A stretch of DNA of 27,893 nt from IMG/VR virus record IMGVR_UViG_3300023118_000025, positions 1 through 27,893 of that record. One strand, written 5' to 3'. This document shows positions 1,452-12,654 of this stretch, piece after piece. Every line of letters begins with the position of its first letter. Within the stretch, counting starts at the first letter, position 1. Position numbers and translations under genes: made by a program. This DNA comes from a virus. The notes under the pieces were generated by a model. The model saw nothing but the letters and a program-made list of their open reading frames with translations. It did no database searches and was not told the DNA's origin.

Positions 1452-2309
1452 ATGCCGAAGATCAACCCGAACATCATGAACGAGCTGGCTAATGTCGAGC
1501 TCAATTCTCTCGAGAGTCTTTGCCGCATGGGTTCGGACCTTTCCACCGAATCACTGCAGCTGCCGTTCATCGATACCGTCAAATCGAAGTTCAACGAATT
1601 CGTCGATCGCTCCTCCACCTTCCTCAACGGTTTGAAGGTGGGCAACTACCGTTCTAACAAGTTGAACTACCTCAGCGCTGTGGCCAACTTCAACCAGGCG
1701 AACTACTCCACCAACCGTTTGATCCCCCTGCACGTAGCACCGGGCTTCAACGGCAAGCTGGTCCCGTTCCTCAACTATCTGCTCGAGCACATCCTGCCGG
1801 TGGTTGAGCCACTGGAAGCTACCCTGAAGAAAAGCAACACCCGCCTGGCTCAGATCCTGAATGAACCTGATCGCTTGGCTGCGCAGAGCGGCATCAAGGA
1901 ATTGCGCAATTCGATTCCTCTGATCACCCTCGAGCAACTGAACAAGGTGAAGACCTTCTTCAACAGCTCCAACACGCCAGAAATACAGGCGTCCAAACTG
2001 ATCGACCGTAACGCCGATCTGGAAACTGCATTCAAGCTGACCAATGAGTTGAACGACCGTCTGGCCAAAGCCAACCTGTCCGGCATCGACTCCATGGTCA
2101 ATCGCTTCGCCGATCTGTCCAAGAGCTTCAAGGACCATCTGGCTGCACACGATGATGCGGTGTCTGGTAAGGTCGGTAGCCAACTGTCCGATCTGTTCTA
2201 CACTCTGGGCGTTACTGTCAGCGCTGCAGCGGTTCTTCTCGAGATCCTGCCTCAGCACGTACAGGCCATGGAAAAGAACATGCAGATGCTGGAAAAGAAA
2301 AGCGCTTGA
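1452..2309 (+). CDS. helix-rich protein of unknown function
   Basis: I do not recognise this 285-residue protein. It lacks a signal peptide or membrane segment. Most of it looks alpha-helical, with long amphipathic stretches such as residues 110-150 and 185-235. The C-terminal part (about 236-262) is hydrophobic and small-residue rich (LGVTVSAAAVLLEIL), followed by a Lys-rich end. No Cys/His metal site or nucleotide-binding motif is visible. It is first in a two-gene plus-strand unit, with its stop 20 bases before the next GTG. A virion or scaffold-type role is possible because of the coiled character, but this is a guess. Confidence 0.8.
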   Translation: MPKINPNIMNELANVELNSLESLCRMGSDLSTESLQLPFIDTVKSKFNEFVDRSSTFLNGLKVGNYRSNKLNYLSAVANFNQANYSTNRLIPLHVAPGFNGKLVPFLNYLLEHILPVVEPLEATLKKSNTRLAQILNEPDRLAAQSGIKELRNSIPLITLEQLNKVKTFFNSSNTPEIQASKLIDRNADLETAFKLTNELNDRLAKANLSGIDSMVNRFADLSKSFKDHLAAHDDAVSGKVGSQLSDLFYTLGVTVSAAAVLLEILPQHVQAMEKNMQMLEKKSA

Positions 2310-2329
2310 TCTAAAAGGAGGGTGCAGCT

Positions 2330-2839
2330 GTGGGCTTTCTATACATCTTTGGCGAAACACATGGCGACCCTTCTGATGTGCGGCGCATTGAAAGAGAAAC
2401 TCGAAGAATACAACCGGCCGTTATAGCCCACGAGCTGCTTTATGACGATCGATGTGCTTCTCTAGCCGGAATTAATTTCAGGTTATCGAAATGCAAGAAG
2501 GGCGGCATTTGCGACCCTGATCTGAATAAGGATATTTACGAACTTGGCAGGGATTTGAACGCGCAACTCATCGGCATTGATATCGAGGTCGATAATCCGA
2601 GGTTATCGTTAAAGCAAAAATTCGCTATTCGGGAAAGGCACATGTCTGACGAATTGGCGCATCTTTTGAAGAGGGTCGAGGCCGAAGATATAGACATCGT
2701 CGCCGTCGTTGGTGACACGCATCTTCGATCTATCCAAACCAAAGAGTTAGGTCCATCTTCTCCAATTGTGCAAAAATTCAGTTATTCGAAGAAAGTGGTC
2801 ATCAACAGGTCCACTTCTTCTCAGGCAGAAATACCCTAG
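2330..2839 (+). CDS. TIKI/TraB/EreA-like GxxH superfamily protein
   Basis: This 169-residue protein starts at GTG 2330, with a strong AAAAGGAGG (2313-2321) eight bases upstream. It begins with GETHGD (residues 8-13), then HELLYD (34-39), GIDIE (82-86), RERHM (101-105) and VVGDTHLRSI (126-135). Two GxxH motifs (G8-H11 and G128-H131), a conserved Glu after the first helix (E35) and a mid-protein Arg/His-Met motif are the signature of the superfamily holding TIKI metalloproteases, TraB/PrgY, ChaN and EreA. The spacing fits a compact single-domain version; family members are usually 250 residues or longer. There is no signal peptide or membrane segment, so it should act in the cytoplasm. Members are metal-binding hydrolases or inhibitors of peptide or small-molecule signals, and the substrate here is unknown. 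The gene follows the 1452 gene and ends in a hairpin at 2855. Confidence 0.6.
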   Translation: MGFLYIFGETHGDPSDVRRIERETRRIQPAVIAHELLYDDRCASLAGINFRLSKCKKGGICDPDLNKDIYELGRDLNAQLIGIDIEVDNPRLSLKQKFAIRERHMSDELAHLLKRVEAEDIDIVAVVGDTHLRSIQTKELGPSSPIVQKFSYSKKVVINRSTSSQAEIP

Positions 2840-2854
2840 AATTAGCTATAGCGA

Positions 2855-2887
2855 CATACACGCCCGGCTAAATGCCGGGCGTGTATG
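2855..2887 (+). terminator. bidirectional hairpin with conserved TATGCTG tail
   Basis: A perfect 14-bp stem CATACACGCCCGGC/GCCGGGCGTGTATG (2855-2868 and 2874-2887) with loop TAAAT lies between the convergent genes ending at 2839 and 2892. It is followed on the plus strand by CTGTTT. There is no long U-tract. It belongs to a family of similar hairpins at 7911, 12660 and 20338, with shorter relatives at 21597 and 21723. Confidence 0.75.
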
Positions 2888-4872: not shown

Positions 4873-5286
4873 TCAGGACCGTCTTGCTTTGATCTCACCG
4901 ATCAGGCATTTACGTTCCGTGTGCAAACGTCTGAGTTCCGTACGCTGCAGCTTGATGTGAGCGATCAACAAATCAACGACGGCTTTGTTAAGCTCGTCTT
5001 TGTTCTTTCCTTCGATCTTTGAAAGATCAGGTAAGCCAATTTCACTGACGTTGTCTTCCGCCTTCTCAATGGCGATGACGCAATCATGGATAGCATCAGG
5101 TTTAGGCAGGTGGGTAGACTTGTCCACCACCTGCACCGTTTGAGCGTTGGCAGAACCAGTCGTGTTATACGGCGATTCACCAACGCTTGTGTAAATGGTA
5201 ATGCTGGTAGAAGGTACAACGGGAGTGCATGATCCAAGTAAAAGCAGTGGGATTTGGATCATGAGACGCGGGTTAAGTTTAGCCAT
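4873..5286 (-). CDS. putative o-spanin (outer-membrane lipoprotein, Rz1-like)
   Basis: This 137-residue protein opens with a short basic stretch, a hydrophobic core IQIPLLLL and the lipobox LGSC, placing the lipidated Cys at residue 20. The mature part has a Thr/Ser-rich linker and then a helical, charged region (about 80-137) that could pair with an i-spanin. The gene lies 14 bases after the coiled-coil membrane protein gene (5301), the usual i-/o-spanin order, but the two are separate rather than embedded. Spanins join the inner and outer membranes in the last step of Gram-negative lysis. A plain phage lipoprotein with another role cannot be excluded. The endolysin candidate is far away at 19579. 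Confidence 0.55.
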   Translation of the reverse strand: MAKLNPRLMIQIPLLLLGSCTPVVPSTSITIYTSVGESPYNTTGSANAQTVQVVDKSTHLPKPDAIHDCVIAIEKAEDNVSEIGLPDLSKIEGKNKDELNKAVVDLLIAHIKLQRTELRRLHTERKCLIGEIKARRS

Positions 5287-5300
5287 GGTCGTGTCCGGGG

Positions 5301-5795
5301 TTAAAGGTTCTTAAGCTGGTCTTCAACGTAGTCCTTCAAAGACTTATCTGGTACAGCTCTACGTGGTCGATCAGCGGGGACAGGCGTTTTTACAGGATCC
5401 TTCTTAGGACTCTTCAACGGATCAGGCTGAATCGTCAACGTCGGAGGTACTTGATCCGATGGAGGAGGTGTTACGTCTGCAGGTGGCGGATGTCCTTTCC
5501 CAAAGGCATGCTCCATGAGCTGCTTCTTTTCTCCTTCTAGCGTGGCTATGCGTTCTCGCAAATCGGCTATAACCGTCGCGTTATAGCCCAACTGTTGATT
5601 TGCCACAGCAAGTTCGTCATAGACTTTGTCAGCGTTCCCGCTGACCTTGATGAAAATGAGGAAGACCACCAGAATGCAGGCGATGAGAAAACAAGCCAAC
5701 TTATTCTGTGCAACGATCTCCTGTAATGCCTTCTCTTTGAGAAACCATTCTCGAAGAAAAGGGAAGAGGGATTTGAGTATTAAGAGAAACGTCAC
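5301..5795 (-). CDS. putative i-spanin (inner-membrane coiled-coil protein)
   Basis: The start chosen is GTG 5795, because GAGGG lies eight bases before it. The in-frame GTG at 5804 touches the ribosome site and is unlikely to be used. The 164-residue product has one clear membrane segment at about residues 33-49 (LACFLIACILVVFLIFI), a coiled-coil region at 57-95 (VANQQLG...LRERIATLEGEKKQL) and a Pro-rich tail (about 100-150). An N-terminal amphipathic, hydrophobic segment (2-19) precedes the membrane helix. The topology and the lipoprotein gene directly downstream fit an i-spanin. The Pro-rich periplasmic part is more typical of o-spanins, so the roles are tentative. Confidence 0.5.
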   Translation of the reverse strand: MTFLLILKSLFPFLREWFLKEKALQEIVAQNKLACFLIACILVVFLIFIKVSGNADKVYDELAVANQQLGYNATVIADLRERIATLEGEKKQLMEHAFGKGHPPPADVTPPPSDQVPPTLTIQPDPLKSPKKDPVKTPVPADRPRRAVPDKSLKDYVEDQLKNL

Positions 5796-5907
5796 AACGA
5801 ACACCCTCTATTTTTGGAAATAGTATAGTTTCAGACCTACACGGGGTGTATTTTTACACCTTAGAGACGCATACCTTTATCGCTAAAAAACACCCGAGGT
5901 GTCATCT
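5796..5907. promoter_or_regulatory. divergent promoter region with repeated ACACC/GGTGT sites
   Basis: This 112-base region separates the divergent spanin candidates and the 5908 gene. It holds a perfect inverted repeat GGTGTA-TTTT-TACACC (5845-5860), an overlapping TACAC-GGG-GTGTA (5838-5850) and a third pair ACACC-CGA-GGTGT (5890-5902) that covers the ribosome site of the 5908 gene. ACACC also occurs at 5801-5805, at the ribosome site of the 5795 gene. AGTATAGT (5822-5829) is -10-like on both strands. This could be an operator array or a translational hairpin. Function is inference. Confidence 0.4.
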
Positions 5908-7233
5908 GTGAATATCTTTAAGGCTTTTGCCCATATCGGGGCACTGTCCGATAACGCTCCCGGCGTCGTGGCACCTGTGGGCGAGCTTTCGAAGTGGTCC
6001 CTGACTTTTGTCAAAGAGAACACGCTCCATGTGCTGCCCGAATTCCCTGACGAAACGCTGGTGGGTTTCAGCTATAAGGAAGACGATGTCGTCAAACCTG
6101 TACCTGCAGGCACGATCTCCAGCTGCTTCGTGGCAGTGAGTTGGATCTACACTCAGGCTAAGTTGGGTAGCTTCAACGACATCAAGGACAGCTTCCAGCA
6201 GAAGTTCATTACCAACTTCGGTAATGAATTCGATTTGATCGATTCGGGTAAGATGATCCAGTTCCAGTCGTACTTTGCGCCTGAGTACATCGTCATCGCA
6301 CCTAAGGATCAATCGATCTCTGATAGCTGGCGCATCTGGTTCGCCGACGATTCGTTCTTCAACCAGTACGACGAGTTCGAAATCGTTCCCGTTGTTCCTC
6401 TGATTCCTCTGGATCTGTTCTTCGACGATTACGATACCGTCAAGGGTCTGATCGAAGGTCTCCAGCAGTCCGAGCTGTTCGATCGAATCCGCATCGCTCG
6501 TGACGTTTATCCAGAAACCTATCAGCGCTCCGACGTATTCACCTGGCAGCAGGCGAGCAATCATGCGCTCAAGATTGATACCGACTGGGTGACACTGGTC
6601 TATGGCGCGGCGGGCAACAACCTCGACGCTGTGAAAGAAGCTCTGCGTGACTACATCCTGAAGCCTGGTAACTCGACCCACACTCGCGATGAGTGGGCTG
6701 AGATCTTCCCGGACATTTTCACGTCGACTGAGTTCATCATCACCCCGATGTGGCATCTGCCGGCGGTTCCAGGCGGCGACCGTCAAGTCGGTACGTTCTC
6801 TGGCGTCACTCAGCACAAGATCGCTCGTGAAATGTGCCACCTGACCTGCAAGGGTGTGAAGTACACCAATGAACACATTGATGAAGTAATCTCGTCGGTG
6901 CCTTCTCAGTATCGTTCCCTCATGCTTGCGGTCGTGGGTGGTCCTGAGAACCGTGATGGCGTGGATGTGCTCAATGAGGTCTTCGCGGACTTCATGAACG
7001 TACCTATCACTCACATCGACTTTGGTCGGATGAGTCAGAAGACTCGCACCTGGATCGCTACTGTTCTTGACCCGATGCTGATGCACGCTGAAGACATGAC
7101 GGTCAACTCAGGTGTACCTGCAGGCTTCAACCGCGTGGTGCGTGACGGTGTCGTCTATCTGGCCAAGAGCTACGATAAGTTCCTTTATCTGGTTGTGACC
7201 GCCTACAGCGTCAATAAACTGGCCGCTGGCTAA
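5908..7233 (+). CDS. probable virion protein of unknown function (441 aa)
   Basis: The start chosen is GTG 5908, because GAGG (5896-5899) lies eight bases upstream. A GTG three codons earlier overlaps that site. The protein is acidic and mixed alpha/beta, with an Asp/Phe-rich stretch (PLIPLDLFFDDYDTVKGLIE near 170-190). It has no signal peptide, membrane segment or catalytic motif that I can identify. Codon use is highly regular, as in the structural genes further right, which suggests strong late expression. It is followed 11 bases later by the 7245 gene, so the two are probably co-transcribed. Confidence 0.8.
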   Translation: MNIFKAFAHIGALSDNAPGVVAPVGELSKWSLTFVKENTLHVLPEFPDETLVGFSYKEDDVVKPVPAGTISSCFVAVSWIYTQAKLGSFNDIKDSFQQKFITNFGNEFDLIDSGKMIQFQSYFAPEYIVIAPKDQSISDSWRIWFADDSFFNQYDEFEIVPVVPLIPLDLFFDDYDTVKGLIEGLQQSELFDRIRIARDVYPETYQRSDVFTWQQASNHALKIDTDWVTLVYGAAGNNLDAVKEALRDYILKPGNSTHTRDEWAEIFPDIFTSTEFIITPMWHLPAVPGGDRQVGTFSGVTQHKIAREMCHLTCKGVKYTNEHIDEVISSVPSQYRSLMLAVVGGPENRDGVDVLNEVFADFMNVPITHIDFGRMSQKTRTWIATVLDPMLMHAEDMTVNSGVPAGFNRVVRDGVVYLAKSYDKFLYLVVTAYSVNKLAAG

Positions 7234-7244
7234 GGGGTGGTCTG

Positions 7245-7889
7245 ATGGCTCGTCTCACTCCAGCATTAGGCGCCAAGGGTCTGTTCTCCCTTCGCCTTCC
7301 GTTTGTCGCTACGGCCACAGTGGTTTATCGGGTAGGTGCTGAGCAAACTTTTGAGGACATGATCAAACGCGGTCTCGATCCTCAGAAGGTTGTTTACGAT
7401 CCAGTTGGGTTATCGTCAGTCGATTACGCCAATGACCAAGCGGCAGGTGCGGCGATCATTACGCTCCTGTCGGATACGGAGCTTCCGAAATACGTGCCGG
7501 ACACGTACATCGATTCGTATCCAAACATGGGCGTGATTCCTCACTCTCGTGTGGTCATGGCAGCCGACCTCGGTATGTTGCCTGATACCTACGACCTGAC
7601 TCGCGCACAGCAAGCGTTTGCCAAGGCGATCTCTGATGACATTGGGGTCGCTCCAAATATCGTGCTGTGCGTAGCGCCAGTCTCCGATGCTATCACTCAG
7701 GAACAGTACGTTCAGAACTTGAATGCGCGCAATGCTGCGATCGAGAACCGAACAACCGACTACGCATTGCTCCTGCAAGCCCGTGATCAAATCGCGGCCT
7801 TGACTCAAAGTAACGCGCAGCTTATTGAGATCATTGAGCAACAGCAGGCGATCATCGATGAGCTGAACGGCACTGCGCCTGGCGACTAA
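7245..7889 (+). CDS. unknown protein with C-terminal coiled coil (214 aa)
   Basis: ATG 7245 follows GGGGTGG. The N-terminal two thirds are mixed alpha/beta (Ala/Asp-rich, several VVYD/VVMAAD-type strands). The last 45 residues (about 165-208) form a heptad-like coiled coil rich in Gln and Ile (LLLQARDQIAALTQSNAQLI), suggesting oligomerisation. I do not recognise a family. It pairs with the 5908 gene and ends before the 7911 hairpin. A virion assembly role is possible. Confidence 0.75.
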   Translation: MARLTPALGAKGLFSLRLPFVATATVVYRVGAEQTFEDMIKRGLDPQKVVYDPVGLSSVDYANDQAAGAAIITLLSDTELPKYVPDTYIDSYPNMGVIPHSRVVMAADLGMLPDTYDLTRAQQAFAKAISDDIGVAPNIVLCVAPVSDAITQEQYVQNLNARNAAIENRTTDYALLLQARDQIAALTQSNAQLIEIIEQQQAIIDELNGTAPGD

Positions 7890-7910
7890 ACAAAAAAAAA
7901 GAAGTAAAGG

Positions 7911-7943
7911 CATACACCCCCGGCTCAATGCCGGGGGTGTATG
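7911..7943 (+). terminator. bidirectional hairpin with conserved TATGCTG tail
   Basis: A perfect 14-bp stem CATACACCCCCGGC/GCCGGGGGTGTATG with loop TCAAT lies between convergent genes. CTGCG follows on the plus strand. On the left is A9 (7892-7900) then GAAG, which on the minus strand gives a run of nine T after the stem at a 10-base distance. The twin at 20338 has the same arrangement. Confidence 0.75.
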
Positions 7944-7950
7944 CTGCGTA

Positions 7951-8364
7951 TCAGAAAATCATGTTTTCAAGCTTTCGGATGTCGTCAAGATCAGCCTTGC
8001 GAGTTTCTTCGCTCCTGTTGAGTTTGCCTGTGAGAAAGATTTTGTACGAGTGAAGATACCGCAGTGTTTTTGTCAGGAACCCATTGACCTCAGTGACCTC
8101 GGTTGGTTTCTTCAGGAACAGTCTGACGCGATCGTTGTAAATGATGCACGATCCTTCATCTGTCCTTTCTACCGGGTATCCTTCTTTTACCAAACGATCA
8201 AAGTGAACTGCAGGGATGTCCAAATCGACGCGGGCAGTCATGTCGCGAACACCGGCCATCACCAGACTCGAGCCTACGCCCAGAACTACATCCTTGTAGC
8301 CCATGTTCGTGGCGCTGAGCAGAAGAGCAGTTTCGACTTCGATTATTTTACGAGTGCATTGCAT
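7951..8364 (-). CDS. nucleotidyltransferase-fold protein (137 aa)
   Basis: The start is the second of two nearby ATGs, with GGAGG seven bases upstream; the first ATG is in another frame. The protein shows GVGSSLVMAGVRD (29-41) followed by VDLDI (46-50). This is the G[GS]S...DxD core of the DNA polymerase beta-like nucleotidyltransferase fold. The C-terminal KADLDDIRKLENMI (about 123-136) resembles the 'K..D..D+..L' end of AbiEii/MNT-type proteins. At 137 residues it is minimal in size. Family members transfer NMP to proteins, tRNA or small molecules; whether this one is active is unknown. A third catalytic acid may lie near RVRLFL (about 79-84), but I cannot place it. It is the last gene of the minus-strand operon headed by the SMC-like ATPase. 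Confidence 0.5.
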   Translation of the reverse strand: MQCTRKIIEVETALLLSATNMGYKDVVLGVGSSLVMAGVRDMTARVDLDIPAVHFDRLVKEGYPVERTDEGSCIIYNDRVRLFLKKPTEVTEVNGFLTKTLRYLHSYKIFLTGKLNRSEETRKADLDDIRKLENMIF

Positions 8365-8428
8365 TGCATGTCCTCCAGAGGACTTTAAATGATGTATTCA
8401 TCTACGCAATGTGTGACTGAAAGAAAGT

Positions 8429-8665
8429 TTATTCTTCGTTTTCTTCGGGAACGTATTTCCTGTAATGCGTGAAATTATCGGGAGCGACGTAAACTTCCAA
8501 TGTATCGCCGCGTTTGAACCGCAAGTCCCAGCGTTCATCGGCTGGGATGTTGACGCCAACACTCTGACCTTCAGTGCTGACGTACATTTTCCCGTATCTG
8601 AATGTCGAGACTTTACAAACCCCGAAGAAGTCCTCCTCGGGGAATTCATATTCGCCGTTAGACAT
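8429..8665 (-). CDS. small acidic protein of unknown function (78 aa)
   Basis: ATG 8665 is preceded by AGGAG at seven bases. The start overlaps the end of the upstream gene by eight bases, typical of translational coupling. The product is acidic and probably beta-rich (KVSTFRYGKMYVSTEGQSVG, later GDTLEVYVAP), which suggests a small barrel, and ends in EENEE. No family is recognised. An overlapping longer frame of 83 codons starting at 8649 lacks a good ribosome site and was not chosen. Confidence 0.7.
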   Translation of the reverse strand: MSNGEYEFPEEDFFGVCKVSTFRYGKMYVSTEGQSVGVNIPADERWDLRFKRGDTLEVYVAPDNFTHYRKYVPEENEE

Positions 8666-8831
8666 GACCCACTCCTAGCTTCCAGACAATGACCACTATA
8701 CCAATAGCGAGCATCGTACTGATGGAAGCTAGAACGCCGCTTGGTCCAACGCCGGATTTACCAGCGTACCAGCCAGTGACGAATGTGCAGGACAGACCAA
8801 GGGCCACAATCCAGACATAGACTAGGTCCAT
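8658..8831 (-). CDS. small two-helix membrane protein (57 aa), copy B
   Basis: The start is ATG 8831, whose A is shared with the TAA stop of the gene before (TAATG); GAGGG lies upstream. The product MDLVYVWIVALGLSCTFVTG... has two predicted membrane helices (about 3-20 and 33-51) separated by a Gly/Lys loop (WYAGKSGVGP). Size and helix layout match the 8831-9004 gene, and a GYxxG[RK]-like turn is shared (GWYAGK versus GYLHGR). A holin-like or inhibitor role is conceivable, but the operon partners are DNA-processing genes. A longer upstream frame would cover copy A and is rejected. Confidence 0.65.
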   Translation of the reverse strand: MDLVYVWIVALGLSCTFVTGWYAGKSGVGPSGVLASISTMLAIGIVVIVWKLGVGHV

Positions 8832-9004
8832 TATACTGCCCTCGACCACATGAAGACGCCCAGACCGATTACTGTCGCCATGTTCACTAAGATCACAGTG
8901 ACAGTAAACAATTCTACCGGTAAGTGTCGCCCATGCAAATACCCGACACCAGCACCTACAGTTACGCAAATCATCACGAGCCACAAAAGATTTTGTTCAC
9001 TCAT
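8831..9004 (-). CDS. small two-helix membrane protein (57 aa), copy A
   Basis: This 57-codon frame starts at ATG 9004, directly after the stop of the SMC-like gene, with GGAG nine bases upstream inside that gene. It ends in TAATG, shared with copy B. It reads MSEQNLLWLVMICVTVGAGV, then a GYLHGRHLPVE loop, and a second helix ending in FMWSRAV. Two membrane helices with a charged short loop are visible. Its length is identical to copy B and the layout matches, which suggests tandem duplication. The function is unknown. Confidence 0.65.
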   Translation of the reverse strand: MSEQNLLWLVMICVTVGAGVGYLHGRHLPVELFTVTVILVNMATVIGLGVFMWSRAV

Positions 9005-11440
9005 TTACGAAAACTCCACATGACGGTTGTATTGATGCGGATAGTTGATGTTGCGGTCATCCAGAATGATGGTTTCTGAATTGGGGAACGCGGTCTGTCC
9101 ATCGAGACTGTGGCTGATGATCAGCACCTGAGAGTATCGATCGTTGTCGATCAAGTCTTTCATGAGCGGAATCAGGTTGTGGCGATGCACTTCGTCAAAC
9201 GTTGCACCCAACTCATCAATCCAAAGTGGGTACTCGGTAAGGTTCATGCAGATGTAGCCTGTCAGCACAAACGCAATGTCGATGATGTCAACACTAGCAC
9301 CACTGCCATTGGCAATGTCTGGCCGCTGAATGTTGTTCACGATCAATGGGAATTTGTATTTCAACTCATCCCCACCTTCAATACCGGGCAAGATGTAAAG
9401 CGGATAGCCCCACACCCGCTGTATCATCTCGTTGACGCCTGTGATGATGCCTGAGAGCTGTAAGGTGATCTGCTCGGCAATGAGTCCATTCTTCGGACAA
9501 AGTGCGTCTACGAGCGCCTTGGTGGCTTCTAGACGGAGCAGCGCTGTGCTGTGCTTGACTTCAAGATCCTTAAGGACCGTTTCGTGAGATTCATTCTCAG
9601 CGATGGCCTGCTCATGGATACTCAATGTCTCAAGCGTCTTCTTGATCAGCCCTTCCACCATGACATCAGCCTGATGGTTGCTGTAATCGATCAACGCTTG
9701 TTTCAGTTGTTCGTAACCTTGATTGCACCGATGCAGACGTTCGGTGTAAGCCGTGTGGTTACGGATTACTGTTTCAACGCGTAGACGGCGTAGCTTAAGG
9801 TCCTGGATCGTTTGGAAGATACGGTTGTACTCATGCTCAGTTTCAAGATAAGCGTCACGTACTCCAGCCAGCTCAGGTGCCTCTTCCCGCAGATCAGCAA
9901 ATACATGTTCAATCTCTTCGATGCGATGACTCAGCTTTTCACGCTTACGGGCCACTTGTTCATCACGCGCATAGACCGATGTGCAGATAGCTAAGCCAGC
10001 ACCAAGTTTCACCCAACCTGCTTGTTCGAGGTAAGTGAACAGACCTGGGTATTTGTTCAGGTATCGATCCTTGATATCCTCCAGCTGCCCGTAGAGTTTG
10101 ATGTTCTCACGGACCTCTGCCTGCTTGGCGTTCAGTTCGTTCAACTCGTTCAACTCTACCGTCGACATGCTGCTGCCGTTTTGGTAACGAGCATTCAGCT
10201 CTTCCAAACGCCCTGCTTCAATACCCGGTTTAAACACATGGGTGCAAGAAGGGCAGGTGACCTCAGCACAACGATGGATGTGCATGATCTGACGATCAAT
10301 ATCTTCGAGAAGTCCATGGATCTTATCGACGCGTTGTTTCTTAGCGTAGACTCGATCGTTGATCTGCTCGACTTCATCTCGGGTTACCATGACAGACGGG
10401 ATGTCGCTGATCGCTTGAGTCAATGCATCGATTGCATCATTAGCTGGGATGAGCAGGCTATCGTGCAATCCGGTGATGGATTTAGGACTTGCATCCAATT
10501 CTCGTTTAAGCTCAACCAACTCAACCTTCAGTTCATCGACAGGTACAGAAAGCAAATTGTCGGCTTTCTCTTTCCGACTGCGCAGTTTGTCAAGGTTCTC
10601 ACCATTGACCTTCAACTCACCAGTCAATTGGTTAATCGAAGCCAAAAGATCTGACGACATTTCGTACAGTTCTTCGAGGCTGTTGGCGTCAAGCGTGTCA
10701 GGATATTCAGCATAGGCGAACTCCTGAGTGTTGCGCTTGATGTCATCGATCATCCACTGGATCTGCTCTGTCGTACGGACTTCTTCACCAAGGAAGTGTT
10801 TCGGTTCGTTCATCAGAAGCTTCAGTGTTTCACGCAGCTCCAGCGCTTTAGCGCGCATGGCTTGCAGATCCTCAGGTTCGATCATGTTCTTGCGAGCAAA
10901 ACCTACCTGATTACGCAACCATTCTTCAACAGACTTCGCAGCACTGTAAGCTTTCTGATAATCCTTGTGCTTACGGAAGGCGTATTCGAAATCAACCGAC
11001 GAGAAGTTGGCAATGCAATCACGACGCTGTGTGGCAGTCATCTTGGTGAAACGAAGATTGCCAGACAAGAAGTTGTGCAGCTCACGAGTCCAGCCAAGGT
11101 GCTGTTTGATCAGCTCCAGTTGCGCTGTAACGTTGCGGCCTTTGTTCAGGTTCTCGCCACCGTCGATGCTGAAGAAGAAAGACCACTTACCGTTGAGTCG
11201 GTTCTCCAGCCTGTAGCGATGACCCTTGTGGAAGACCACTTGAATAAGCCAACCGCCTTCATCGAAGTCACTAGCTTCTGGAGGTAGTGGGGAGAAAGCG
11301 ATTTGTATGAGGCTAGTCTTGCCGCTCCCATTGGTGCCGAGCACCATTTGTGCTTTGCAGGTGGGGCGAATGACGACACGTTCTTTATCGTTTAGGGACG
11401 TGCGGTTGCAGCGAAATAGATCAACTTCTTCGAAGAACAT
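9005..11440 (-). CDS. gp46/SbcC/Rad50-like SMC ATPase subunit
   Basis: The 811-residue protein has a Walker A GTNGSGKT (about 35-42), long coiled coils, a central zinc hook CPSC (about 396-399), a signature-like NGSGASVDIIDIAF and a Walker B WIDELG (about 735-740), followed by an ISHS switch His. This is the complete layout of the SbcC/Rad50/T4 gp46 family, which partners with an Mre11/gp47 nuclease to process DNA ends and recombination forks. The nuclease gene is not in the window. GGGGA precedes the ATG. The gene heads a compact operon with two small membrane proteins, a 78-residue protein and a nucleotidyltransferase-fold protein, with overlaps or close spacing up to 8429. Confidence 0.9.
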   Translation of the reverse strand: MFFEEVDLFRCNRTSLNDKERVVIRPTCKAQMVLGTNGSGKTSLIQIAFSPLPPEASDFDEGGWLIQVVFHKGHRYRLENRLNGKWSFFFSIDGGENLNKGRNVTAQLELIKQHLGWTRELHNFLSGNLRFTKMTATQRRDCIANFSSVDFEYAFRKHKDYQKAYSAAKSVEEWLRNQVGFARKNMIEPEDLQAMRAKALELRETLKLLMNEPKHFLGEEVRTTEQIQWMIDDIKRNTQEFAYAEYPDTLDANSLEELYEMSSDLLASINQLTGELKVNGENLDKLRSRKEKADNLLSVPVDELKVELVELKRELDASPKSITGLHDSLLIPANDAIDALTQAISDIPSVMVTRDEVEQINDRVYAKKQRVDKIHGLLEDIDRQIMHIHRCAEVTCPSCTHVFKPGIEAGRLEELNARYQNGSSMSTVELNELNELNAKQAEVRENIKLYGQLEDIKDRYLNKYPGLFTYLEQAGWVKLGAGLAICTSVYARDEQVARKREKLSHRIEEIEHVFADLREEAPELAGVRDAYLETEHEYNRIFQTIQDLKLRRLRVETVIRNHTAYTERLHRCNQGYEQLKQALIDYSNHQADVMVEGLIKKTLETLSIHEQAIAENESHETVLKDLEVKHSTALLRLEATKALVDALCPKNGLIAEQITLQLSGIITGVNEMIQRVWGYPLYILPGIEGGDELKYKFPLIVNNIQRPDIANGSGASVDIIDIAFVLTGYICMNLTEYPLWIDELGATFDEVHRHNLIPLMKDLIDNDRYSQVLIISHSLDGQTAFPNSETIILDDRNINYPHQYNRHVEFS

Positions 11441-12387: not shown

Positions 12388-12654
12388 ATGCCAGGCGTTG
12401 CATTAGTAGGATTGAATCAAGCAGGTGGCGTGCAGAAAGGTGGTGGTCAGTCTTTCTGTAAAGGCAATGGCGCCCTTGTATCGGTGGTTGGTGATGCCGT
12501 AGAGTCTCACGGCAACGGACCCCACCAAGGCGCCCGGATGGTTCAAGGTTCGACCTTCTTCAAAATCAATGGCATTCCTGTCTGCATCGCTGGCAATCTT
12601 GCATCGTGCGGAGATGCCACTGACGGCCAAGGTTGGTTCAACTGCAGCAACTGA
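12388..12654 (+). CDS. PAAR-like spike tip protein
   Basis: The 88-residue protein starts at ATG 12388 after a strong TAAGGAGGTCAC. It reads MPGVALVGLNQAGGVQ, then GDAVESHG, H.GARMVQGS, INGIPVCIAG and ASCGDAT. These are the spaced Gly/His/Cys features of PAAR-domain proteins (including the C-terminal C-x(n)-C zinc-like residues). PAAR proteins cap the spike in phages and type VI secretion. There are three Cys late in the protein plus one near residue 24. The gene is coupled to the spike gene upstream. Confidence 0.85.
   Translation: MPGVALVGLNQAGGVQKGGGQSFCKGNGALVSVVGDAVESHGNGPHQGARMVQGSTFFKINGIPVCIAGNLASCGDATDGQGWFNCSN

What the first reader, a model, noticed from the sequence alone, without database searches (positions are those of the whole stretch)
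2330..2839. Phage gene with the two GxxH motifs of the TIKI/TraB/EreA superfamily
Seen: GETH (8-11) and GDTH (128-131), plus HELL and RERHM motifs in the right order. Established: this superfamily contains metal-dependent proteases and inhibitors of peptide signals (TIKI, TraB, PrgY) and the EreA esterase. A compact soluble phage version could act on a host signal, toxin or defence molecule. It is 169 residues, smaller than usual members.
Basis: partly seen in the sequence, partly recalled or inferred. Interest (0 to 1): 0.6.

Follow-up and report, generated by a model that had tools for sequence, protein, structure and literature searches.

The report
Minimal TIKI-fold hydrolase in jumbo phages
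A large bacterial virus carries, as an inserted extra gene, a very small protein with the fold and all five known catalytic positions of TIKI/TraB hydrolases (enzymes that cut peptides or esters), and it belongs to an unannotated family found only in phages so far; its target is unknown.

Summary
ORF 2330-2839 (169 aa, GTG start, GGAGG ribosome site) belongs to a family seen only in phages: 30 named phage records plus about a dozen metagenomic viral contigs. In 21 diverse members (down to about 25% identity) E9, H11, E35, R101 and H131 are invariant. These match the published 2His/2Glu catalytic set plus the conserved Arg of TIKI hydrolases, at near-identical spacing. AlphaFold models of two lineages (pLDDT 93) both give TIKI-superfamily structures as top PDB matches. 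Profile comparison agrees (ChaN 83%, TraB 66%, TraB against ChaN 86%; all decoys under 1%). The gene is a single-gene insert: syntenic relatives, including PCH45 and SPLA10, lack it, and in one about 91%-identical neighbourhood the upstream stop codon runs straight into the same terminator hairpin. No signal peptide is apparent, so it should act in the cytosol. Best reading: an accessory, cytosolic, minimal TIKI hydrolase acting on a host or phage substrate. Catalysis is inferred; the substrate and the 'signal, toxin or defence' role are untested, and I found no direct evidence of anti-defence. New variant of a known kind.

The parts
2330..2839 (+). TIKI-fold gene, 169 aa, GTG start, stop codon included
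2316..2323 (+). ribosome-binding site (AAGGAGGG) upstream of the GTG start
   Evidence: sequence
2351..2362 (+). codons for GETH, residues 8-11 (E9 and H11: first His/Glu of the active site)
   Evidence: invariant G, E and H in 21 members
2429..2440 (+). codons for HELL, residues 34-37 (E35: second catalytic Glu; H34 is not conserved in the second lineage)
2630..2644 (+). codons for RERHM, residues 101-105 (R101: conserved TIKI arginine)
2711..2722 (+). codons for GDTH, residues 128-131 (H131: second His of the active site)
2855..2887 (.). hairpin, perfect 14-bp stem with 5-nt loop, between convergent genes; probable shared terminator; also present in relatives that lack the TIKI gene
1452..2309 (+). 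upstream core gene (PHROG 4682, unknown function) that the TIKI gene follows; the two are probably co-transcribed

Best explanation
The gene encodes a minimal, single-domain, cytosolic hydrolase of the TIKI/TraB/ChaN/Ere superfamily. A parallel beta sheet places E9, H11 (after strand 1), E35 (end of strand 2) and H131 (after strand 4) at one end of the sheet, with R101 from the long helix beside them. By analogy with TIKI and Ere enzymes, a His-Glu pair activates a water molecule that attacks the carbonyl of a peptide or ester bond, and R101 and the conserved C-terminal residues (L132, R133, S144, R160) help hold the substrate. The phage gained it as an accessory gene placed between the stop codon of a core gene and that gene's terminator, and it most likely acts inside the infected cell on a host or competing-element molecule. 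Shown: sequence family, invariant residues, predicted fold, insertion and empty site, purifying selection. Inferred: catalysis, cytosolic location, peptide or ester as substrate. Unknown: the substrate.
For: Homologues in 30 of 50,697 phage records, found by tblastn with two different queries, and in IMG/VR contigs; none in 72,556 plasmids, and none confirmed in the bacterial and archaeal genome scan, which is sensitive to close relatives only. All five catalytic positions are invariant in 21 members. The spacing E-H-E-R-H is 2/24/66/30 here against 2/28/71/29 in RRSP, where E3900, H3902, E3930, R4001 and H4030 were each shown to be needed (PMC6254334). AlphaFold pLDDT 93.3 and pTM 0.88 with motifs at strand C-termini; Foldseek PDB top matches RRSP (E 6e-5, probability 1.00) and ChaN (E 2e-3, 0.99) (PDB codes identified). 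Second-lineage model, pLDDT 93.1: RRSP (1.00), HopBA1 (0.92), BcR135 (0.60). Viral structure library: TraB family protein of Marseillevirus LCMAC201, E 1.6e-5. hhalign against ChaN 83% and collinear over the length, against TraB 66%, control TraB against ChaN 86%; 18 shuffled or reversed decoys at most 0.42% and 8 real unrelated families at most 0.50%. Pfam PF01963 in 5 of 14 members and NCBIfam traB in 3. Accessory insert: eight syntenic relatives have UvsX / PHROG 4682 gene / [no insert] / next gene / RNase H, and L120 joins the stop codon directly to the same hairpin; a profile search of seven of those records finds no copy, while the same search finds it in 4 of 4 positive records. The gene has the lowest GC (46.1%) and GC3 (48.8%) of the 22 window genes measured. 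Purifying selection.
Against: The window protein alone matches no Pfam or NCBIfam family, and the member scores are below curated cut-offs. Foldseek TM-scores of about 0.5-0.6 show the same fold class, not a close relative. No coordinates were available to measure active-site distances. Some superfamily members are not known hydrolases (ChaN binds haem; PMT lacks the catalytic residues), so retained residues do not prove catalysis. Low GC is weak evidence of foreign origin, since two nearby genes are almost as low.
Confidence: 0.75

Rival explanations
1. A non-catalytic TIKI-fold ligand-binding protein (ChaN-like), which binds haem, a metal or another small molecule in the infected cell rather than cutting anything.
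For: ChaN gives the best profile match (83%) and is the second distinct protein in the PDB search; DUF5694 and ChaN were weak Pfam hits of family members.
Against: The whole 2His/2Glu plus Arg set is invariant. As recalled, ChaN is a secreted or lipid-anchored haem-uptake protein, whereas this protein starts directly at strand 1 and has no signal sequence. A lytic phage has little apparent use for haem uptake.
Confidence: 0.13
2. A small-molecule esterase or hydrolase (EreA/EreB-like) that destroys an antibiotic or metabolite rather than cutting a peptide or protein.
For: One member matches Erythro_esteras (E 0.0072) and the second-lineage model matches BcR135, an Ere-family protein (0.60). 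Ere enzymes use the same His-Glu pair (PMC6254334).
Against: TraB and ChaN profiles match more members. Ere enzymes are much larger, with an added helical domain for the macrolide (own knowledge), absent here. A phage gains little from macrolide resistance.
Confidence: 0.15
3. A virion protein (structural, or packaged and injected), as one record's annotation 'structural protein' (Arash gp103c) implies.
For: Annotation; jumbo phages of this group inject many head proteins (PMC5694885).
Against: It is absent from syntenic relatives and has an enzyme fold and invariant active site. The main text of the SPN3US virion paper does not mention the product under the gene-number forms I searched, but the correct number and the supplementary tables were not checked, so injection is not excluded.
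Confidence: 0.1
4. A chance ORF, or a Rossmann-like fold (for example a P-loop kinase) with coincidental GxxH motifs.
For: Thymidylate kinases and SRP GTPases appear lower in the Foldseek lists.
Against: Those matches have TM about 0.3 and no P-loop is present; the motif set is invariant and under purifying selection.
Confidence: 0.01

Closest known systems
RRSP catalytic C2 domain (PDB 6A8J, 6A7H, 5W6L), TIKI-family endopeptidase
   Same: Best PDB match in both lineages; same 2His/2Glu plus Arg set at nearly the same spacing; acts in the cytosol
   Different: RRSP is about 470-490 residues with an added N lobe needed for activity on its substrate (PMC6254334); the phage protein is one 169-residue domain with 12-19% identity over the match. 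No shared substrate is implied.
TraB/PrgY/GumN family (Pfam PF01963, TIGR00261)
   Same: GxxH ... R[END]xxM/A ... GxxHL pattern; profile hits in 5 of 14 and 3 of 14 members; hhalign 66%
   Different: 263-position family; its plasmid members (PrgY, TraB) are membrane-bound and thought to act extracellularly on pheromone (PMC7117660). The phage protein has no apparent membrane segment or signal peptide, and has GE/GD where typical TraB proteins have G[TS]/GA.
ChaN (Pfam PF04187, PDB 2G5G)
   Same: GExH first motif; full-length collinear profile match, 83%
   Different: ChaN is a haem-binding protein of about 255 residues; no haem ligand or secretion signal was identified here
PHROG 14325 (unknown function)
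   Same: The window protein matches it, E 2.5e-10; it is part of the same phage family
   Different: It carries no function or fold assignment

Membership tests
TIKI/TraB/ChaN/Ere superfamily | First GxxH (GExH) motif with catalytic Glu and His after strand 1 | tested here: met
   G8, E9 and H11 invariant in 21 members; strand 4-9
TIKI/TraB/ChaN/Ere superfamily | Second catalytic Glu at the end of strand 2 | tested here: met
   E35 invariant in 21 members after realignment; strand 31-34
TIKI/TraB/ChaN/Ere superfamily | Conserved basic residue near the active site | tested here: met
   R101 invariant, 30 residues before H131; in RRSP R4001 is 29 before H4030
TIKI/TraB/ChaN/Ere superfamily | Second GxxH motif near the C-terminal end of the domain | tested here: met
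   GDxHLR invariant at 128-133
[quoted passage not shown]
   Foldseek: only TIKI-superfamily structures at the top, in two lineages. Sheet order was not inspected on coordinates.
TIKI/TraB/ChaN/Ere superfamily | Catalytic residues cluster in space | not testable with these tools
   No coordinates are returned; inferred from positions at strand C-termini
TIKI/TraB/ChaN/Ere superfamily | Hydrolase activity | not testable with these tools
   Needs an assay
TraB/PrgY/GumN (PF01963) | Score over the family's curated cut-off (26.8 bits) | tested here: not met
   Window protein no hit; in a search of ten whole viral contigs, members reach about 13 bits. Not filed as a PF01963 member, only as a relative within the superfamily.
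TraB/PrgY | Membrane anchoring or secretion | tested here: not met
   By reading the sequence: strand 1 begins at residue 4, no hydrophobic signal or membrane segment; no dedicated predictor was run
ChaN (PF04187) | Match to the family profile | tested here: inconclusive
   Member hit E 0.17 with Pfam; hhalign 83% to a ChaN alignment built here
Ere (PF05139) | Match to the family profile and extra helical domain | tested here: not met
   One member, E 0.0072; protein too short for an additional domain

The most novel reading that the evidence does not exclude
A phage-specific family of minimal cytosolic TIKI peptidases that disarm a host signal, toxin or defence protein during jumbo-phage infection; if so, the first TIKI protease shown to work in phage-host conflict, and a natural minimal catalytic core of the superfamily (members as short as about 140 residues).
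Probability: 0.25. Interest if true: 0.78.

Novelty: new variant of a known kind. Interest (0 to 1): 0.45.

Why it matters
The family is carried by culturable, partly nucleus-forming jumbo phages, whose protein-level host takeover is poorly understood. It gives a defined active site to mutate and an unknown substrate to look for. It may also be the smallest natural version of the TIKI catalytic core, helpful for the open question of whether these enzymes need a metal. As a fold assignment for a hypothetical protein it is modest; its value depends on the substrate.

Tried and rejected
Direct Pfam, NCBIfam, PADLOC and PDB-sequence searches with the window protein: nothing. Single-sequence scan of viral contigs: no relative; the alignment-based scan worked. 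Scan of bacterial and archaeal genomes: no relative confirmed, but this is sensitive only to close relatives. Plasmids: none. Guilt by association: nearest neighbours of the closest homologues give no consistent partner and almost no known family. I suspected ADP-ribosyltransferases next to the L015 homologue from motifs; Pfam and PHROGs do not support this, so it is dropped. Seoulvirus and Machina homologues lie near a macro-domain gene, but this is not seen in other lineages. First MAFFT alignments (A1-A4) misplaced the second Glu between the two lineages; a local-pair alignment places E35 in one column in all 21. hhalign against a 5-sequence TraB subset gave a low, uninformative score. Sigma-70 promoter scan: no site. 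Literature: no paper found in the held library on a phage TIKI/TraB protein; the Bazan and Sanchez-Pulido papers are not held, and most subscription journals are missing.

Full report
Observation. The ORF at 2330-2839 (+) encodes 169 residues with the four motifs at the stated positions. It begins with GTG after a strong ribosome-binding site, 20 bp after the gene at 1452-2309, and ends before a perfect 14-bp-stem hairpin at 2855-2887 that lies between convergent genes. The motif pattern did not arise in 20,000 shuffles and is unique among the long frames of the window.

Family. The window protein alone matches only PHROG 14325, of unknown function. tblastn finds 30 phage records of 50,697, the same set as found with the SPN3US homologue: Erwinia, Salmonella, Klebsiella, Shewanella, Escherichia, Proteus and Stenotrophomonas phages, most of them jumbo phages; the genera Seoulvirus, Iapetusvirus and Miamivirus are in the nucleus-forming family Chimalliviridae. 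IMG/VR adds closer relatives at 37-44% identity. No plasmid match; no bacterial or archaeal genome match was confirmed, within the limits of a pattern-based scan. All records call it hypothetical, apart from 'structural protein' in Arash and 'putative lipoprotein' in pEa_SNUABM_43. In 21 members G8, E9, H11, E35, F98, R101, E102, M105, G128, D129, H131, L132, R133, S144 and R160 do not vary. H34, the H of HELL, is not conserved: only the E is. dN/dS is 0.08-0.30 where it can be measured.

Fold. From an alignment of 14 members AlphaFold gives pLDDT 93.3 and pTM 0.88. The strands are 4-9, 31-34, 79-82, 123-128 and 156-159, and each motif sits at or just after the C-terminal end of a strand. [quoted passage not shown]), then ChaN 2G5G. 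A separate model of the SPN3US lineage (pLDDT 93.1) gives RRSP, HopBA1 and BcR135. That paper lists PMT, HopBA1, Bcr135 and ChaN as TIKI-superfamily structures. In the viral library the only named distant match below E 0.001 is a TraB family protein of a Marseillevirus.

Profiles. Members, but not the window protein itself, hit TraB_PrgY_gumN (5 of 14, best E 4.9e-4), erythromycin esterase and TIGR00261 traB (3 of 14, best E 2.3e-4). I built TraB and ChaN alignments from whole-genome searches and ran hhalign: the phage family against ChaN 83% with GExH, strand 3 and GxxHL collinear, against TraB 66%, with TraB against ChaN at 86% as the positive control. Eighteen reversed or shuffled decoys reach at most 0.42% and eight real unrelated phage families at most 0.50%.

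Active site. In RRSP E3900, H3902, E3930 and H4030 are each essential for cleavage in vitro, and R4001 is needed too (PMC6254334). The corresponding spacing here, E9-H11-E35-R101-H131, is 2/24/66/30 against 2/28/71/29. This supports a water-activating His-Glu hydrolase. Whether a metal takes part is open: Tiki is reported as metal-dependent and RRSP as metal-independent. Catalysis is inferred, not shown.

Gene as cargo. Six IMG/VR contigs and the named phages PCH45 and SPLA10 carry the same order, UvsX-like / PHROG 4682 gene / next gene / RNase H / virion protein, without the TIKI gene. In L120, whose neighbouring proteins are 83-93% identical, the stop codon of the PHROG 4682 gene (TGATCT) runs directly into the same hairpin. 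A family-profile search of seven of these records finds no copy elsewhere, while the same search finds one in each of 4 positive records; the viral contigs may be incomplete. The insert has the lowest GC and GC3 of the 22 genes measured, which is weak support for recent gain. So the gene was either gained by the window's lineage or lost by all sampled relatives; gain is simpler. Using an upstream core gene's transcription and terminator is typical of accessory phage genes.

Function. Accessory status, lack of a signal sequence, small size and an intact active site point to an intracellular enzyme used in host takeover or conflict. I found no direct support for a specific target: PADLOC gives nothing, neighbours are inconsistent between lineages, and Seoulvirus and Machina homologues lie near a macro-domain gene but others do not. 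Rivals are a ligand-binding ChaN-like protein, a small-molecule esterase, and an injected virion protein.

Verdict. I file it as a new, phage-specific, minimal variant within the TIKI superfamily, not as a member of PF01963, whose cut-off it does not reach.

Noticed in passing
window 4873-5286 and 5301-5804 (-): Adjacent ORFs, one with a lipobox-like LLGSC and one with an N-terminal hydrophobic segment and a proline-rich tail; they look like an outer- and inner-membrane spanin pair, unannotated by Pfam.
   Followed up: no
window 12388-12654: 88-aa PAAR-like spike-tip protein (Pfam E 2.1e-4, below the cut-off) beside a baseplate assembly gene.
   Followed up: no
L014 and L015, about 5400-10500: Genes flanking the TIKI homologue overlap it end to end, and several share a short MKIxDLFE-like N-terminus, which could be a packaging or targeting leader.
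   Followed up: partly
L006 3800-5449 and L007 3794-5452: Seoulvirus and Machina homologue lies between an acetyltransferase-like gene and a macro-domain gene, just before a transglycosylase.
   Followed up: partly
L002 6001-6453 (Arash gp103c) and pEa_SNUABM_43 171863-172153: Family members annotated 'structural protein' and 'putative lipoprotein'; neither name is supported by what was found here.
   Followed up: partly
BFVD A0A6B7EUB3: Another 168-residue viral protein of unnamed origin matches the model (probability 0.99, TM 0.51/0.52); possibly a second viral TIKI family.
   Followed up: no
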